Assembly: GCA_005116745.1 (NCBI GenBank)
Contig: SWDS01000001.1
Span: 62,001-126,000, forward strand
DNA from: Nitrospira sp.
Lineage (GTDB): Bacteria; Nitrospirota; Nitrospiria; Nitrospirales; Nitrospiraceae
DNA length: 64,000 bases
Direction of reading: 5' to 3'
Position 1 is the first letter of the stretch. Each line of letters opens with the position of its first letter. The position numbers were made by a program, and so were the translations under genes. Shown one piece after another: positions 50,338 through 58,282 of this stretch. The notes below the pieces were generated by a model. The model was not told where the DNA came from. It made no database searches and saw nothing but the letters and a program-made list of their open reading frames with translations.

Positions 50338-51090
50338 ATGCCCCCTGTCTTGTTGACCAAGCGCATCGAATTTTCCGCCGCCCATCGCTATGGCCGGCCG
50401 GAATGGGATGACGTGAAGAATCGCACGGTATTTGGGCGCTGCTACAATCCTCCTGCGCACGGACACAACTACTTGATTGAACTCACCGTCTCCGGCGACA
50501 TCGATCCCACGACCGGCATGGTCGTCAATCTGTTCGATCTCAAACGAGTGCTCCTGGACGTGATCGAAGAGTTTGATCACAAGAACCTGAATCTCGACAT
50601 GCCCTACTTCAAAAATCAGATTCCGACCTCCGAAAATTTTGCACACGTGTTGTGGACGAAGTTAGCGGCTCAACGGGATATCGGTGCCCTCCATACCCTT
50701 CGACTCTGTGAGGATGAAGATCTCTATGCCGAGGTCACCGCAGCCGACGGGCTGGACGCCGCCGCGGTCGCAAAACGATATTCGTTTAACGCGATCCACG
50801 AGAGCCATCAGGGGCGAGATTGGGACTGCTACGTGACGGTTCACGGGACGATCGATCCGGTGACGGGCATGGTGACTGACATCGGAGCGTTGGACCGACT
50901 GGTACAGGATCGGGTCATCACGCCGTTTGATCGGCAGGATCTCCGCCAGGTGCTTGGCTCTGAAACGGTGAAGGGAGAGGCTCTTGCCAAGGCCATCTGG
51001 GACCGTCTCGCCGGGCATCTCTCAAGTGGAACGCTCCACAATATTCGCCTGGTGTCGTCCCGCGATCTGGCGTACGAAGTCTCCGCCTAG
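50338..51090 (+). CDS. Tandem PTPS/QueD-like protein (second domain degenerate)
   Basis: 250 residues containing two 6-pyruvoyl-tetrahydropterin-synthase folds. The first keeps the zinc His at 16 (FSAAHRY), the catalytic Cys at 35 and His 41/43 (GRCYNPPAHGHNY) and the GMVVNLFDLK motif. The second (from about residue 143) keeps YSFNAIHES, GTIDPVTGMVTDIGALDR and the final strand but lacks the HGH zinc site and the Cys. So only one domain looks active. It may make 6-carboxy-tetrahydropterin or another pterin. It begins 12 bases after DUF3501, which is an unusual partner. Confidence 0.82.
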   Translation: MPPVLLTKRIEFSAAHRYGRPEWDDVKNRTVFGRCYNPPAHGHNYLIELTVSGDIDPTTGMVVNLFDLKRVLLDVIEEFDHKNLNLDMPYFKNQIPTSENFAHVLWTKLAAQRDIGALHTLRLCEDEDLYAEVTAADGLDAAAVAKRYSFNAIHESHQGRDWDCYVTVHGTIDPVTGMVTDIGALDRLVQDRVITPFDRQDLRQVLGSETVKGEALAKAIWDRLAGHLSSGTLHNIRLVSSRDLAYEVSA

Positions 51091-51492
51091 CGTTTTGCAG
51101 AAAATCCTGACTGGACAGATGGCCTTGCTAAACCGCTATCCAGGGACGGACCTACATTCGGTAGATTGTCACAATTGACACCGCAAGGTGTATCGAATCA
51201 GATTCAATACTGTATCTTTTTAGCTCGCTCGTATGTCTGCACCGATCTTCACCTAGGGACGGTCTGATTAATTCAAAGCTCCAGGTCTCGATCATCCAGA
51301 TTCCCACTGTTTTGAACACCGACCGAATGAAATAGTGAATTAATCAGAGCTTCCCTAGGATAGGGTTCTCTGTTCTACCCGCTCACTGAAAGAGTTTTTG
51401 CTAAGTTGATACAGATTAAGAGGAATTGAAGTCAATGGCACATCCATTGCTTCTATTCCTTATATTGCCAGGCTCAACCCAGAGGAATTCAG
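51091..51492. other. Intergenic region holding a MITE
   Basis: No gene is supported. The centre is the 98-bp IS5-type MITE (annotated separately). After it, an AT-rich segment near 51395-51435 is the most promoter-like part for the patatin operon; AGAGGAATT precedes the ATG at 51493. Confidence 0.5.
51257..51354. mobile_element. 98-bp MITE with IS5-like ends and CTAG duplication
   Basis: The left end GGACGGTCTGATTAATTCA (51257-51275) and the reverse complement of the right end (51336-51354) agree at 17 of 19 positions. Both sides are flanked by CTAG (51253-51256 and 51355-51358), the usual 4-bp target of IS5-group elements. There is no coding capacity, so a transposase would act in trans. 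Confidence 0.75.
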
Positions 51493-52956
51493 ATGTTCAA
51501 GTTCGCTCTCATTGTGTCGTCGCTTACGATACTGACCTTGCCAGGGTGTTTTGCCAAGGTTCAGACTCTGCCGGCCCATCCTCAATCCGAGACGTCTGTT
51601 TTTGGGTCGATTGAGGAGTCCTCCACGCTTGTGGGCATCGCTCTGTCTGGAGGAGGTAGTCGAGCCGCCACATTTGCTGCCGGGGCGCTCGAAGCACTCG
51701 CCAGCTATCCCGTCAAACAAGAAGAGAAAACCGTGAGTCTCTTAGAAACCATCACACATATGTCGAGTGTCTCGGGCGGAAGCCTCGCGACGGCCTATTA
51801 TGCAATGAAGAAACCAGGGAAGTCGGAGCCGGTGCTGCAAGGTGCTTCGCTCTCTTCATCCTACAAGACCTTCTTTTCAGACTTTCAGCGAGACATGCAG
51901 ATGAATTTCCAAGGCCGGGCACTGGCTCGCCAGCTTCTCTTCTTCCGGGCGCTGAACCCGGCAAAGTTAGCCTACTCTTTTGCTGAGGTCTGGGACAGCC
52001 ACTTTTTCAACGGGCAGACCTTCTCCGTGCTGTATGAACGGGAGCAACGCGGCGACGCACCCCGAGTCATTCTCAACGGCACGATCTATAACACGGGCCG
52101 CCGTCTCGCGCTGACGACGCTCGGGCCGCAGGATTTCAAGTACGATTTCGTGGAGCATCTGAAGGACAGCTTCGCCCAACGCAACGTGGAGATGAGTAAG
52201 ACCGGGAAGGAAGAATTTACTCGAAGTATTGAGACAGCCAGAAAACAATTTATGCCGATCACGTTTGAAGGAATAGGGAGTGACCATCACACGGTTCCGA
52301 TTTCTCTCGCGGTGGCTTCTTCCGCGTCGTTCCCGCCCATCGTTGGACCGGTGACATATCAGACCGAAGGAACGGGTCGCTATACTCACGTCGGCGATGG
52401 TGGACTATTTGATAACCTCGGAACGGAATCGCTCACCACCCTGTTCTTGAGCAAGATTCCCAAAGACGCGACGACTGCCAAACGAGGACTGATCGTAGTC
52501 ATCGATGCATCGTTTCCTTTCTCTTCGGGGGAGCAGGTCCTGAATCACAACACCAAAGGTTTTCAAGTATTTCGAAAAGATCCGGCACGGATCGTCGGAA
52601 TCATGGAAGCTCGTGCCAATGCGTACCAAACGATACTGTGGCAAAGCCTGCGCAGTCAGGATGTGGTATTGCCCGACTATGATCATCTGAGAATCGTCAT
52701 TCTTCGCCACAGCGATGCCAGATGGGAACGTGGCTATGAAGATCTCCCCGACGTCTGTCGGAGCGAGTTCGCTCCGTCCGTGAGTGCACAGGAGATCCAG
52801 GCCGCCGTCGACCGAATTCCCACCCAATTCAAGATTGAGAGCGATTGTGACGGAGCGCTCCTTGTTGCCGCCGGACATCAAGTCGTGGCCCAACAGCGTG
52901 AACTTCTGGATCGCTTCTTCTACGGGGTGAAACACCGGACTGCCACGATGCCATGA
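51493..52956 (+). CDS. Patatin-like phospholipase, lipoprotein
   Basis: 487 residues. The lipobox LPGC (Cys about 19) makes it a lipoprotein. The patatin oxyanion loop is ALSGGGSRAATF near 50-61, the nucleophile Ser about 94 in SSVSGGSLATAYY, and the Asp about 302 in GDGGLFDNLG. The family removes acyl chains from lipids. The first Gly of the G-x-S-x-G elbow is replaced by Ser, as in the next gene's product, so they are one subfamily. The stop overlaps the next ATG by four bases (ATGA). Confidence 0.88.
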   Translation: MFKFALIVSSLTILTLPGCFAKVQTLPAHPQSETSVFGSIEESSTLVGIALSGGGSRAATFAAGALEALASYPVKQEEKTVSLLETITHMSSVSGGSLATAYYAMKKPGKSEPVLQGASLSSSYKTFFSDFQRDMQMNFQGRALARQLLFFRALNPAKLAYSFAEVWDSHFFNGQTFSVLYEREQRGDAPRVILNGTIYNTGRRLALTTLGPQDFKYDFVEHLKDSFAQRNVEMSKTGKEEFTRSIETARKQFMPITFEGIGSDHHTVPISLAVASSASFPPIVGPVTYQTEGTGRYTHVGDGGLFDNLGTESLTTLFLSKIPKDATTAKRGLIVVIDASFPFSSGEQVLNHNTKGFQVFRKDPARIVGIMEARANAYQTILWQSLRSQDVVLPDYDHLRIVILRHSDARWERGYEDLPDVCRSEFAPSVSAQEIQAAVDRIPTQFKIESDCDGALLVAAGHQVVAQQRELLDRFFYGVKHRTATMP

Positions 52957-55900
52957 TGTCTAAGCTCGGCACGTCTCATCCTATCCGCCTCTCCAGCGTA
53001 TTGGCGGAGGAGTTTGTCGGTCTCCATGGGCCCTTGCCCGACGGGCTTTTCCCCGAAGGCCCAGAGGCTCCATACGATGACGCATTGGAGCACAGCAGGT
53101 TGCGTGCGTTGTATGGGCACATTCATTCCCAGGCCACTCAACGTTCGGCCCTCTGTTTTTCCGGTGGCGGCATCCGAAGCGCAACGTTCAACCTCGGTGT
53201 GATCCAGGCGCTTGCCAAGCTCAATCTCCTGGACAAACTTGATTATCTCTCAACAGTGTCAGGCGGAGGGTATATTGGGGCGTGGCTCACCGCTTGGATT
53301 CATCGGTCAAAAAGATCTGGTGGGTCTGGCATTACCGACGTACAGAACATCCTCAATGGAACAGCCTCCAATTTGCATCCGGGCCTAGAACCAAGTGCCC
53401 TGACATGGCTGCGGGACTTCAGCAACTATCTCACGCCGACCATCGGACTGTTTTCAGCAGATTCCTGGACGATGTACGGCATCGCCCTGCGCAATCTCCT
53501 CTTGAACTGGCTCGTGCTGATCCCGCTGATTGTGGCAAGCTTCATGATTCCCCGCCTACAGATTGCCGTGATCAGGCATTCTCCAGAATTCCTCTCACCA
53601 AGTCTGCTGATGTGGGTGGGCTTGGTCTTGGCTATTCCATCATTGATGTATCTTCACCTCTACCGTCCGAGCCTGAAACGCTTTCGAGGTAAGGATCGGC
53701 CGGTGTCTGCTGCCGCCGGTTTCGCAGACTCCTCGCCAGATTTTGGAGGCCAAGGCTGGTTTATTGGGTTTTCGCTGGTGCCCCTCGTTGTCGCGGCCTA
53801 TTGTCTGACGACGGCCTGGGCTTGGTATTGCAATGTGCCTGGGCGGCTGTCGGAAATCAGGTTCCTTGGTTGGACAACCAGAGAGACGTTTGCCGCAACG
53901 GGTGCCGGCATTCATCTGGCGAGCTGGGGATTCGCCGTGCTGTGGACGTTTTGGGTTGCTGTCATTCGTGGGAAAGGCAATGACTTCCTGAGGTCTGCCG
54001 GATGGAAAGCGCTTGAGGGAGTGCTTGTCGCCGTGTCCGGGGCAATCGGAGGATTTGTCCTTTGGGCCATTCTTGCTCAGACTCCCCCTGAATCGATCCC
54101 CGTGCGATTTATTCCTCTCAATCCTGCCAGTCTGTTGGTAAAGGACTACGCTGAATGGTATGCCGCTTTCGCAGTTCCAGGTTTTTTGGGGTTGTTCCTT
54201 CTCGTTGCCACCCTATTCATTGGGCTCGCAGGTCGATTTACCAGCGATCAAGAGCATGAGTTTTGGGGACGCACGGGCTCGTGGATGCTCAATGCCGGCG
54301 TCACTATTGGAGTTGTGGGAGCCATCATCATCTTCGGCCCGGGATGGATGGCCACAGTGGGTGCCTGGACATCGGCGTCCATCGGAGGAGCGGCAGGTAT
54401 TCTGTCTCTGGTCGGTGGCTTTAGTGCCAAAACATTGTTAGCCCCATCGGACAAAAAAGATCGCGCGTCATGGATGGCTGAATACGGCGTGAAGGTGGCC
54501 ACACCCCTGTTTGTGATTCTCCTTATTGTAGGCCTCGCATTAGGAACGAGCGTGCTTGTCAAAGGCTGGTCAGGTTTCCTGGGTGCTCAGACCGAGGGCT
54601 GGACGGAAACGGGCCTGCTCATGCCGGAACCCTACAACACACCGTGGATCCACTCACTGGCTCTCCACAATGCCAAAGTTTTTCACCTACTGGGCTTGTG
54701 GGGGTTGCTATGGATCATCGGCTTGATCATGGGCTGGTGCATCAACGTGAATAAGTTTTCGTTGCATGGCTTCTATCGAAACCGCCTGATCCGTGCCTAT
54801 CTCGGAGCAACTCGATCATTGACCGAGGGGGACGTGCGCCGACCTAATCCGCTGACGGGGTTTGACCCAAAAGATAATATCTCCATGGCCGAACTTGCGG
54901 GTTATGATTTTGATTCCCCTGAGCGAAACTCGACGGTTGTTCAGCGCCCGTTCCACATCGTGAATATTGCCCTTAACCTCGTTCGTTCAGAGCGACTGGC
55001 GTGGCAACAACGGAAGGCGCAATCCTTCACGGTCTCTCCTCTGCATTGCGGGAGTTGGCAAGACCTCGGGTATCGACGCTCCCACGAGTACGGTTACAAT
55101 TCAAGCGTCAACCGTGCCATTAGTCTGGGTACGGCCATGGCCACGTCCGGTGCAGCTGCCAGTCCCAATATGGGATATCATTCCTCTCCAGCGGTGACCT
55201 TTCTGTTAGCCTTGTTCAACGTTCGCCTCGGGTGGTGGCTTGGTAATCCTGGCCAAGCTGGAAGCAAACCCATACTCGGAAGGCTCGGGAAGTGGTTCAA
55301 TTGGTGGCCCACCTACAACCGAGCGCATCCTGTGTTCACCATTGCTCCCCTCGTCAAGGAACTCTTCGGTCTGACCGATGGGAGGCAGTCCTATGTGTAT
55401 CTTTCTGATGGGGGCCATTTTGAAAATCTCGGACTCTACGAGATGGTGTTGAGACGATGTCGGACTATTGTCGTCGTTGACGCTGGTTGTGACTCTCAGA
55501 TGTCCTTTCAGGATTTAGGAAACGCAATCCGCAAGATCCGGATTGATCAAAGGGTGGATATCGAACTCGATGTCGAGATGTTGAAACAACCAAGTGGATT
55601 AGGGCTGTCTGGCTGGCACCATGCCATCGGCTCTATCCGCTATGACAAAGTCGACGACGGCGCACCTGTCGGGACACTCCTTTATCTGAAGCCTTCGCTG
55701 ACAGGCGATGAGCCTGTCGATATCCAGAACTATGCTGCTCATCACCCCGCATTCCCTCATGAGCCCACCTCCGACCAGTTTTTCGACGAATCGCAGTTTG
55801 AGTCGTACCGTCATTTGGGCGAACACATCGCGACGGAGGTGCTGCGCTTCGGTCTTCTCAACGGAGGCTCACTGCCGAGTGAGTTATCTCTTAACGATGT

Positions 55901-56891
55901 CATCGGTCGGCTCGAACAACATTGGGTCCCGGTTCCTCCGGGAGTACAGGATTCGTTTCTGCGTGAAACTCAGGCCCTGCTGGACCTCGAAAAACAACTG
56001 TGGACGGACCCCGGTTTGGCACGTTACGACATCGAAACCTATCCGGAAATCATCTCGGTCTTTGGCGTTGACCCAGGGAAGGTCGATCCCCTTGATGCAC
56101 GGGCGAGCCTGCACGTCTGTTACTCGCAGATCCAGCTCATGGAAAACGTCTTCCTCGGTGCCCGACTGAGAGAACACCATGGCCATCCCATGAATCGGGG
56201 ATGGATGAATCTATTTCGACGGTGGGCAAACGCTGACACATTTCGGCAGTGGTGGCCGGTCCTCCGAGGCACATTTAGCCGAGCCTTTGTGGAGTTTGCC
56301 GAGCGCCATCTCCATCTCCCGACCCATACTGATCTGGCCTACGAACAGCGTGAGTTCCCTATAGCGGGGATCCAATTCTTGCGAGACCAATTGGATCGAG
56401 AATGGATAATTGACCCTTCGCTTCCACAGCAATTTGAGGCAGCCCTTCACCGACCATTACTGATTCCCTTGCCAACAGATAGAAAAGGACCAGCGATATG
56501 GCTCGCCTGGATGCCGGGGGTTGTCGGCTCCACTACCGTGGCCTTACCGTTTCCGGACGGCGAACTAATTGGCGTGGTTGCCCTCTCATTACGAGCGGCG
56601 CGAGTGTGGCAGGTACATGGGTGGGTCAAGGTCGGATATCGTGATGTCGGGATCGGACACCATCTATTTGAGCGAGCGCTCTTCGACATTCAGCGCAGCG
56701 TGAACCTTGCCGGAGAAGCGAGTGTGACTCTGGTGGCTGACCTGGGTCCAGGTGATGCCTCTGGCTCCGATGAGCACGACCGCCAGATGGAATATATACG
56801 GTTCTACGAGAGGATAGGATTTCGGCGCGCCCATACGAATCAACATAGCCCCCCGCGCCATTTACTGAGCCGCATCGTGACAAGGAATTGA
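52953..56891 (+). CDS. Giant membrane patatin with C-terminal GNAT-like domain
   Basis: 1312 residues. The N-terminal patatin half-site has CFSGGGIRSATF at about 68-79 and the nucleophile in STVSGGGYIGAWL (Ser 103). A long membrane region follows (about 170-600) with roughly ten hydrophobic helices. The second patatin part is YLSDGGHFENLGLYE with the catalytic Asp near 818. The last 100 residues look like a GNAT fold: GYRDVGIGHHLFERAL for the acetyl-CoA loop and YIRFYERIGFRRAH at the end. Thus a lipase active site is split around a membrane domain and joined to a possible acyltransferase. The ATG at 52953 overlaps the upstream stop. Confidence 0.85.
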   Translation: MMSKLGTSHPIRLSSVLAEEFVGLHGPLPDGLFPEGPEAPYDDALEHSRLRALYGHIHSQATQRSALCFSGGGIRSATFNLGVIQALAKLNLLDKLDYLSTVSGGGYIGAWLTAWIHRSKRSGGSGITDVQNILNGTASNLHPGLEPSALTWLRDFSNYLTPTIGLFSADSWTMYGIALRNLLLNWLVLIPLIVASFMIPRLQIAVIRHSPEFLSPSLLMWVGLVLAIPSLMYLHLYRPSLKRFRGKDRPVSAAAGFADSSPDFGGQGWFIGFSLVPLVVAAYCLTTAWAWYCNVPGRLSEIRFLGWTTRETFAATGAGIHLASWGFAVLWTFWVAVIRGKGNDFLRSAGWKALEGVLVAVSGAIGGFVLWAILAQTPPESIPVRFIPLNPASLLVKDYAEWYAAFAVPGFLGLFLLVATLFIGLAGRFTSDQEHEFWGRTGSWMLNAGVTIGVVGAIIIFGPGWMATVGAWTSASIGGAAGILSLVGGFSAKTLLAPSDKKDRASWMAEYGVKVATPLFVILLIVGLALGTSVLVKGWSGFLGAQTEGWTETGLLMPEPYNTPWIHSLALHNAKVFHLLGLWGLLWIIGLIMGWCINVNKFSLHGFYRNRLIRAYLGATRSLTEGDVRRPNPLTGFDPKDNISMAELAGYDFDSPERNSTVVQRPFHIVNIALNLVRSERLAWQQRKAQSFTVSPLHCGSWQDLGYRRSHEYGYNSSVNRAISLGTAMATSGAAASPNMGYHSSPAVTFLLALFNVRLGWWLGNPGQAGSKPILGRLGKWFNWWPTYNRAHPVFTIAPLVKELFGLTDGRQSYVYLSDGGHFENLGLYEMVLRRCRTIVVVDAGCDSQMSFQDLGNAIRKIRIDQRVDIELDVEMLKQPSGLGLSGWHHAIGSIRYDKVDDGAPVGTLLYLKPSLTGDEPVDIQNYAAHHPAFPHEPTSDQFFDESQFESYRHLGEHIATEVLRFGLLNGGSLPSELSLNDVIGRLEQHWVPVPPGVQDSFLRETQALLDLEKQLWTDPGLARYDIETYPEIISVFGVDPGKVDPLDARASLHVCYSQIQLMENVFLGARLREHHGHPMNRGWMNLFRRWANADTFRQWWPVLRGTFSRAFVEFAERHLHLPTHTDLAYEQREFPIAGIQFLRDQLDREWIIDPSLPQQFEAALHRPLLIPLPTDRKGPAIWLAWMPGVVGSTTVALPFPDGELIGVVALSLRAARVWQVHGWVKVGYRDVGIGHHLFERALFDIQRSVNLAGEASVTLVADLGPGDASGSDEHDRQMEYIRFYERIGFRRAHTNQHSPPRHLLSRIVTRN

Positions 56892-57280
56892 ACCTCAGCG
56901 CATCCAAGCTACTCGACCGGCGAACCGCTCATTGCAGTAGCATAGTAGATTGTGGAAGTGCCATGTGCACTAGAAAACCGCTTTAAGAAGTGACTCTGCT
57001 TGTGCTCCGCCTCGCTAGTGTTGATTCATCCAGCCATGTTGAACAGACATCTCCGTTTGTGAGGAACGAAGAGTGCGGCGGGCTCTCAGTTTATCGGCAT
57101 TGTGTGGGCGCTGATGTCTCTGGTCAGCGTGTTTGCGTGTAGTCAGAGAAATTGGAAGGGCGGCCTCTTATGGCTGCTAGTCGGCGTGGGATTTATCGAG
57201 CCCGTGGCTTGTTGATATGGACATGCTGTCGTCGAATTTGTTGCTCTGATGCCTTGACGGGTACACCAAGACGGCTGTGA
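56892..57280. other. Intergenic region with a possible small membrane frame
   Basis: A frame between 57063 and 57215 (plus) is open for 50 codons and would encode FIGIVWALMSLVSVFACS and GGLLWLLVGVGFIEPVAC, two membrane-like segments. It has no ATG before the first helix and no ribosome-binding site, so it may be a gene remnant or a GTG-started small protein. The rest shows nothing. Confidence 0.3.
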
Positions 57281-57736
57281 CTAATGTCTTGCCTTGTGGT
57301 GGGACTCGCCTCTTGATGCGGCTCCGTTCTTGGCGTTGAGCGGGGTAAAGCGGGCGGCATAGGCCTGCTGTTCCGGCAACCTGAGGAAGACCAGAATTCC
57401 GGTATCCGGATAAATCATAAATGTTCCGCTCCCCTTCAGCTGGTTGTCACCAGACGGTTCCAGTTCAATCTGGATCGTGGCCTTCTCAAACCCGTGCTGG
57501 ATCGTGGCCTTAGCTTTCGCTCCATCGGACGGGATGCCCGTGTCAGAATGATCGGTCACATACAGCAGCAGCTCTCCGTCCTTGGCAACCAACTCAAGAT
57601 GATAAGGGCCTGCAGCAAGCGATTGCCCGCCGTGAAGGGCCTTCACGGGTTCTGTGTGTTTCGCTGTGTGGGCCCAGACCGGCGCCGCTCCGAGCAGCGT
57701 CGCACATAGGGTTAAATATCCTAGGAGATATTTCAT
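57281..57736 (-). CDS. Periplasmic protein, sister copy A
   Basis: 151 residues. A signal peptide ends near PVWAHT. The mature core has LHGGQSLAAGPYHLELVAKD then LLLYVTDHSDTGIPSDGAKA, a beta-rich pattern also seen in periplasmic domains next to metal-efflux proteins. A basic/His tail (GESHHKARH) closes it. It is clearly the sister of the gene at 57797-58282, lies 60 bp downstream of it on the same strand and arose by tandem duplication. Metal binding is an inference from the His residues. Confidence 0.68.
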   Translation of the reverse strand: MKYLLGYLTLCATLLGAAPVWAHTAKHTEPVKALHGGQSLAAGPYHLELVAKDGELLLYVTDHSDTGIPSDGAKAKATIQHGFEKATIQIELEPSGDNQLKGSGTFMIYPDTGILVFLRLPEQQAYAARFTPLNAKNGAASRGESHHKARH

Positions 57737-57796
57737 GATCGGTACTCCAGAATGGCAGCTCCGTATCTCTCAAGAGTGAGTGGTGGACGTCGGCCA

Positions 57797-58282
57797 TCAA
57801 TGCTTCGGTGAGTGGTGATGGTGATGTGGGCCGGCATCATCCGCGTGGGACGGGGATTTTTCAGCCTGTTCGCTCTTGGGTTTCAACGGTGTGAAGCGGG
57901 CGGCATAGCCGTCGTGGTTCGGCAGCTTCATGAAGACGACAACCACGGTATTGGGGGTCAACGAAAAGGTGCCAGAACCACGGAGCATATTGTTCCCCAC
58001 CGGGTGCATGTTCACCTGCGTCCTGGTTGACCCGTTCTCGATGTTGGCTTTGGCTAAACCGCCGTCGACACTGATGGGGTTGTCGGCGTGGTCCGTGACG
58101 TAGACCGTCAGGTCGCCATCCTTCGCGATCAGCTCCATATGAAATGGACCGGTCATGCGCAACTGCCCGCCATGGGGTGCCTGGACAGATTCAAAATATT
58201 CGTCGGTATGGGCACCAGCCGAGAGGGACAGGGACAGGGACAGGGTCATGCCAAATACCACACCAGCAATCGTCTTGTTCAT
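57797..58282 (-). CDS. Periplasmic protein, sister copy B, His-rich tail
   Basis: 161 residues with a signal peptide (LSLSLSLSAGAHT). The core PHGGQLRMTGPFHMELIAKD then LTVYVTDHADNPISVDGGLA matches copy A position by position. The C-terminus adds DDAGPHHHHHSPKH, a strong candidate for copper, nickel or zinc binding. It is read before copy A. No efflux pump lies next to the pair in this window. Confidence 0.7.
   Translation of the reverse strand: MNKTIAGVVFGMTLSLSLSLSAGAHTDEYFESVQAPHGGQLRMTGPFHMELIAKDGDLTVYVTDHADNPISVDGGLAKANIENGSTRTQVNMHPVGNNMLRGSGTFSLTPNTVVVVFMKLPNHDGYAARFTPLKPKSEQAEKSPSHADDAGPHHHHHSPKH

What the first reader, a model, noticed from the sequence alone, without database searches (positions are those of the whole stretch)
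51493..56891. Two-gene patatin operon ending in a giant membrane patatin-GNAT fusion
The first gene encodes a patatin lipoprotein, the second, overlapping by four bases, a 1312-residue protein with a patatin site divided by about ten membrane helices and a C-terminal GNAT-like domain. Both share the unusual S-x-S-G-G nucleophile elbow. An acyl-removing site and a possible acyl-transferring domain in one chain, with a lipoprotein partner, suggests a membrane lipid remodelling or toxin-defence system that I do not recognise.
Basis: partly seen in the sequence, partly recalled or inferred. Interest (0 to 1): 0.62.

Follow-up and report, generated by a model that had tools for sequence, protein, structure and literature searches.

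The report
Patatin lipoprotein beside membrane patatin–acetyltransferase fusion
A Nitrospira operon encodes a lipid-cutting enzyme predicted to sit on the outer side of a cell membrane and a giant partner in the membrane that joins a second lipid-cutting site to an acetyltransferase; the joined form is conserved in one bacterial family, probably for membrane-lipid upkeep, and I found no earlier description of it.

Summary
P1 (51493-52956) is a 487-aa patatin with an invariant lipobox. P2 (52953-56891, 4-base overlap) is a 1312-aa polytopic protein; about ten helices split its patatin motifs (GGGIR 71-75, Ser103, Asp819). Its C-terminus is a GNAT by sequence: Pfam in 12/12 homologues, above cut-off in two other fusions, intact R-x-x-G-x-G; a poor model's 50 best Foldseek matches are acetyltransferases. 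The "shared elbow" is wrong: P1 has S-V-S-G-G, P2 T-V-S-G-G.

P1-P2 is an old gene pair, adjacent in 18 loci of four Nitrospiraceae genera. GNAT-less P2 cores also occur in Proteobacteria and Bacteroidota. The 335-residue helical+GNAT module was found only fused to or beside P2, in 5 of 169 Nitrospirota genera, under purifying selection. Most P1-linked copies lack it; in one genome it is a separate adjacent gene.

Most likely a housekeeping membrane-lipid remodelling module, P1 outside the cytosol and P2's domains inside, the GNAT using acetyl-CoA on an unknown amine. Little supports toxin or defence beyond the window copy's variable site. No activity was testable. New variant of a known kind.

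The parts
51493..52956 (+). P1: patatin lipoprotein, 487 aa; type II signal peptide (lipobox L-P-G-C19), GGGSR 53-57, nucleophile Ser94 in S-V-S-G-G, Asp302 in DGG
   Evidence: ORF; PF01734 1e-16; motif residues and lipobox G-C invariant in 7 homologues
52953..56891 (+). P2: membrane patatin-GNAT fusion, 1312 aa, start overlaps the P1 stop by 4 bases (ATGA)
   Evidence: ORF; homologues in 8 Nitrospiraceae genera
53130..53297 (+). P2 first patatin part (residues ~60-115): GGGIR 71-75, nucleophile Ser103 (T-V-S-G-G)
   Evidence: PF01734 2e-6 at 67-115; motif residues invariant in 17 sequences; positions
53496..54743 (+). P2 membrane bundle (residues ~182-597), about ten helices; N and C parts on the same, probably cytosolic, side
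   Evidence: Hydropathy; positive-inside count in homologues with ten predicted helices; side is inference
54744..55880 (+). P2 second patatin part (residues ~598-976) with S-D819-G-G-H-F-E-N
   Evidence: Invariant in A2; the stretch most often matched outside Nitrospirota
55908..56342 (+). P2 helical linker domain (residues ~986-1130), no known family
   Evidence: 55-62% identical to g12 and G268 copies, 74% to G243; dN/dS 0.02-0.08 within g12; no Pfam match
56343..56888 (+). P2 GNAT-like domain (residues ~1131-1312); acetyl-CoA motif R1230-D-V-G-I-G; FYERIGF motif
   Evidence: Pfam Acetyltransf_7/1 in 12/12 members, above cut-off in L084/L085; Foldseek top 50 all acetyltransferases, low-confidence model
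51252..51359 (.). 108-bp element with 24-nt terminal inverted repeats upstream of P1, MITE-like; second copy on another contig
   Evidence: the repeat finder; own-genome search

Best explanation
A membrane-lipid acyl-hydrolase module. P1, a lipoprotein, would hydrolyse (lyso)phospholipids outside the cytosol. P2 is a polytopic inner-membrane patatin: its Ser and Asp parts are both cytosolic, meet because the number of helices between them is even, and act on lipid in or at the inner leaflet. In the fused form a cytosolic helical linker carries a GNAT that uses acetyl-CoA, most likely to N-acetylate an amine linked to the same lipid pathway (a head group, a product, or a regulatory lysine). Shown by sequence: patatin motifs in both proteins, lipobox, split motifs around a hydrophobic bundle, GNAT family membership with an intact CoA-binding motif, purifying selection within g12, conserved pairing. 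Inferred: side of the membrane, joining of the two halves, substrates, and any coupling between the activities.
For: Catalytic motifs invariant across 7 P1 and 17 P2 sequences. Positive-inside counts favour cytosolic N and C parts in five homologues with ten predicted helices (5-8 K/R in outer loops against 13-19 in inner). P1-P2 adjacent in 18 loci of four genera, four more by coordinates; the 4-base overlap recurs in L096 and L098. In three genomes (G022, G026, G300) P1 is instead followed by a differently built six-helix membrane patatin, so P1 recurrently travels with a membrane patatin. Synteny UPF0114-[lipoprotein]-P1-P2-HerA across g1, g14, g17, g19 and, without P1, g12. Low dN/dS in all P2 segments within g12, GNAT included (0.03-0.16). 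The helical+GNAT module is a separate gene directly behind P2 in G242, which supports a functional link.
Against: No activity, localisation or substrate data. The first G of the classical GxSxG elbow is S or T. The GNAT is missing from most P1-linked copies, so it is dispensable for the pair. The window GNAT has diverged faster than the rest (47% against 74-77% identity to G243). The window copy sits at a variable site, unlike the syntenic locus.
Confidence: 0.45

Rival explanations
1. A defence or toxin module: the patatins are membrane-degrading effectors held in check, with the GNAT as sensor, antitoxin or modifier, as patatin CapV is an effector in CBASS.
For: Patatins are known defence effectors (CapV; own knowledge, protein described in PMC9095652). 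The window copy sits at a variable chromosomal site that is empty in G297 and differently filled in others, beside a MITE-like element.
Against: No PADLOC match; no nucleotide-signalling partner adjacent; present in at least 27 genomes of g12, in one syntenic place where inspected; no relative of the C-terminal module and one weak relative of the core in viral contigs.
Confidence: 0.12
2. The GNAT is a regulatory or structural appendage with no lipid role: it acetylates P2 itself or an unrelated substrate, and only the patatin core matters for the pair.
For: GNAT absent from most P1-linked P2 copies, not found with plasmid-borne relatives, and lost or broken in L036 and G264.
Against: Purifying selection on helical and GNAT parts in g12; CoA motif intact; separate gene kept next to P2 in G242.
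Confidence: 0.28
3. P2 acts on a storage or hydrophobic compound other than phospholipid (neutral lipid, polyester, acylated small molecule), the membrane bundle being a substrate channel.
For: The patatin fold accepts many acyl esters (own knowledge); a ten-helix bundle inside the catalytic region is more than an anchor needs.
Against: No gene of storage-lipid metabolism recognised at the conserved locus.
Confidence: 0.15

Closest known systems
Patatin-like phospholipases (PNPLA, PF01734), including E. coli/V. cholerae CapV
   Same: GGGx[K/R], Ser nucleophile followed by GG, DGG dyad motif (motifs as listed in PMC9095652)
   Different: P2 has about ten membrane helices between nucleophile and aspartate, T in place of the first elbow G, and a C-terminal GNAT; P1 is a lipoprotein with S at that place
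Short membrane patatins of Alpha-/Betaproteobacteria and Hymenobacter ('patatin-like phospholipase family protein' or 'hypothetical protein')
   Same: Same split architecture and motifs, 29-46% identity over the matched core
   Different: No match to the helical+GNAT module; no patatin annotated beside the four annotated cases inspected
GNAT N-acetyltransferases (PF13508, PF00583)
   Same: R-x-x-G-x-G motif, FYE..GF motif, predicted strand order; profile and fold-search matches
   Different: Joined through a new helical domain to a membrane patatin; substrate unknown
Cytosolic phospholipase A2 delta
   Same: Weak profile match over the nucleophile region (E 0.013)
   Different: Animal enzyme; no match outside that region, no GNAT

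Membership tests
Patatin-like phospholipase (PF01734) | Pfam score above gathering cut-off | tested here: met
   P1 62.2 bits, P2 28.6 bits, cut-off 27.7
Patatin-like phospholipase (PF01734) | G-G-G-x-[K/R]-G anion-binding motif | tested here: inconclusive
   GGGSR and GGGIR present, but the sixth residue is A or S, not G
Patatin-like phospholipase (PF01734) | G-x-S-x-G esterase box in its strict form | tested here: not met
   S-V-S-G-G in P1, T-V-S-G-G in P2: Ser and the following GG kept, first G replaced. A variant elbow; the family profile is still matched, so I file them as patatin homologues, not as classical PNPLA enzymes
Patatin-like phospholipase (PF01734) | D-G-[A/G] dyad motif | tested here: met
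   P1 D302-G-G, P2 D819-G-G
Patatin-like phospholipase (PF01734) | Phospholipase/esterase activity | not testable with these tools
   Needs purified protein
GNAT acetyltransferase | Profile match to GNAT families | tested here: met
   12/12 homologues; above cut-off in L084, L085; window copy alone is below cut-off
GNAT acetyltransferase | [R/Q]-x-x-G-x-[G/A] acetyl-CoA motif | tested here: met
   R-D-V-G-I-G at 1230 in the window; the pattern was found in all other full-length copies read but one, L102
GNAT acetyltransferase | GNAT fold | tested here: inconclusive
   Single-sequence model poor (pLDDT 47, pTM 0.46); element order fits and Foldseek top 50 are all acetyltransferases, but TM about 0.3
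Bacterial lipoprotein (P1) | Type II signal peptide with lipobox | tested here: met
   Hydrophobic stretch then L-x-G-C, cysteine invariant
Anti-phage defence system with patatin effector (CBASS-like) | Match to a defence model or an adjacent signalling partner | tested here: not met
   No PADLOC hit; adjacent genes are PTPS and an unnamed 151-aa gene

The most novel reading that the evidence does not exclude
P2 is a bifunctional membrane enzyme in which a cytosolic patatin releases an acyl chain or lyso-product and the attached GNAT acetylates the exposed amine of the same lipid: a one-chain deacylation-acetylation step that would make an N-acetylated lipid in Nitrospiraceae.
Probability: 0.1. 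Interest if true: 0.75.

Novelty: new variant of a known kind. Interest (0 to 1): 0.42.

Why it matters
Nitrospira are central nitrite oxidisers. If the reading holds, this locus gives a testable entry to how they maintain their membranes, and a rare case where a patatin is split around a membrane bundle, paired with a lipoprotein patatin, and fused to an acetyltransferase that can also be found as a neighbouring gene.

Tried and rejected
Single-sequence structure predictions of residues 978-1312 and 1131-1312 were poor (pLDDT 42.5 and 47.1). I did not hand in alignments with sequences from genome-search loci, because the tool names only other sources as allowed. NCBIfam and PADLOC gave no match. 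Profile-profile comparison of the GNAT part with four GNATs of the same genome gave 63% probability. PDB sequence search gave weak acetyltransferase matches (best E 0.07). The C-terminal module was not found in plasmids or viral contigs. The count of 9 helices in the window alone was set aside because the missing helix near 480-498 is predicted in some homologues. Literature searches found no patatin-GNAT fusion.

Full report
The window lies in a Nitrospira genome (the only relative found in genome contigs is a Nitrospira MAG; own assembly 3.86 Mb in 32 contigs). P1 is a patatin by Pfam (E 1e-16); P2 is a patatin by its N-terminal stretch only (2e-6, residues 67-115), with a sub-threshold GNAT match at 1202-1291. 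No NCBIfam or PADLOC model matches either.

Anatomy of P1. Seven aligned homologues share an invariant L-x-G-C lipobox after a hydrophobic leader, then GGGSR, S-V-S-G-G and DGG. P1 should therefore be a lipid-anchored protein outside the cytosol; which membrane is not known.

Anatomy of P2. GGGIR (71-75) and T-V-S-G-G (Ser103) lie before, and S-D819-G-G-H-F-E-N after, a stretch of 9-10 predicted helices. Homologues with ten predicted helices have more Lys/Arg in the loops that face inward if the N-terminus is inside (13-19 against 5-8). An even helix number puts both patatin parts on one side.

Is it a GNAT? The window copy alone is weak, but all 12 aligned family members match Acetyltransf_7 and Acetyltransf_1 (best 1.5e-7 and 1.2e-5), and the copies of G243 (L085) and G268 (L084) exceed Pfam's cut-offs. 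The acetyl-CoA motif R-x-x-G-x-G is present in the window and in all other full-length copies read but one. A single-sequence model of residues 1131-1312 is poor (pLDDT 47) but has the GNAT order of strands and helices, and its 50 best Foldseek matches are all acetyltransferases, with low TM-scores. Same-genome GNATs align by profile at E 7e-5 (63% probability). I regard GNAT membership as well supported and the fold as not yet shown.

Distribution. In 175 Nitrospiraceae genomes the P2 core is in 54 (8 genera), the helical+GNAT module in 30 (5 genera) and P1 in 30. Twenty-five of the module carriers belong to one genus (g12), whose intact copies are fusions of about 1320-1390 residues and which has no P1 match; one g12 genome without the module was also seen (G076). 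In 396 Nitrospirota genomes the module was found in 5 of 169 genera, always fused to or next to P2. Split P2 cores without it occur on plasmids of Alpha- and Betaproteobacteria and Hymenobacter. Other phyla could not be searched as whole genomes.

The pair. P1 and P2 are adjacent in 18 fetched loci, with spacings from a 4-base overlap to 103 bases, leaving aside two uncertain start calls; four more adjacent pairs follow from the coordinates. In the Nitrospira MAG contig L036 only the end of P1 is present. In three genomes P1 is followed instead by a differently built membrane patatin with six predicted helices. The exact combination of the window, P1 next to a GNAT-fused P2, was otherwise found only in G268; L036 has lost the GNAT.

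History. A tree of the core places the GNAT-bearing forms as several early branches in Nitrospiraceae, with the short P1-linked forms nested among them (some deep supports are low, rooting by midpoint). This fits loss of the module in most P1-linked copies. In G242 the module is a separate gene about 20 bases behind the core; the N-terminal motifs of that copy fall in a run of N. Within g12 all segments are under purifying selection (dN/dS 0.02-0.29; GNAT 0.03-0.16, helical 0.02-0.08).

Context. In g1, g14, g17, g19 and g12 the locus is typically flanked by UPF0114 and, in many, a HerA-like ATPase, often with a further lipoprotein before P1. The window copy is elsewhere, between a PTPS gene and a 151-aa gene; in G297 these are about 500 bases apart with no insert, and G024 has P1 without P2. 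A 108-bp element with 24-nt inverted repeats lies upstream of P1, with one other copy in the genome. So the window copy was probably gained or lost repeatedly at a variable site.

Function. I take the module to be membrane-lipid housekeeping, with P1 outside and P2's domains inside, because of the motifs, the conserved synteny, the pattern in g12 and the recurrent pairing with a membrane patatin. Defence is less likely: no model match, no signalling partner, widespread syntenic presence in g12. The GNAT substrate is unknown and no activity could be tested. No paper found describes a patatin-GNAT fusion; that is absence from the searched open-access library only.

Noticed in passing
51252-51359: 108-bp element with 24-nt, 92% complementary terminal inverted repeats, MITE-like; one further copy on contig C2 at 75% identity.
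   Followed up: partly
50338-58282 and L112, L042, L109: Variable site between a PTPS gene and two tandem paralogues: P1-P2 here, P1 plus another patatin lipoprotein in G024, nothing in G297, about 3.8 kb of other DNA in G101.
   Followed up: partly
57281-57736 and 57797-58282: Two tandem, similar secreted-looking genes (151 and 161 aa); no Pfam match for the first.
   Followed up: no
L041, L043, L103: P1 followed by a differently built 667-685-aa patatin with six predicted N-terminal helices, as if P2 had been replaced.
   Followed up: partly
L088 4375-7512: P2 relative in G303 whose catalytic DGG region reads S-A-G-E: probably an inactive copy, also without GNAT.
   Followed up: no
L038 10061-11134 and relatives: Conserved lipoprotein-like gene of about 357 aa with no Pfam match, directly upstream of P1 in many genomes but absent from the window.
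   Followed up: no
L036 3283-4115: In this MAG P2 ends at 1053 aa within the helical domain, with ORFs of another kind behind it: the GNAT has been cut off.
   Followed up: partly
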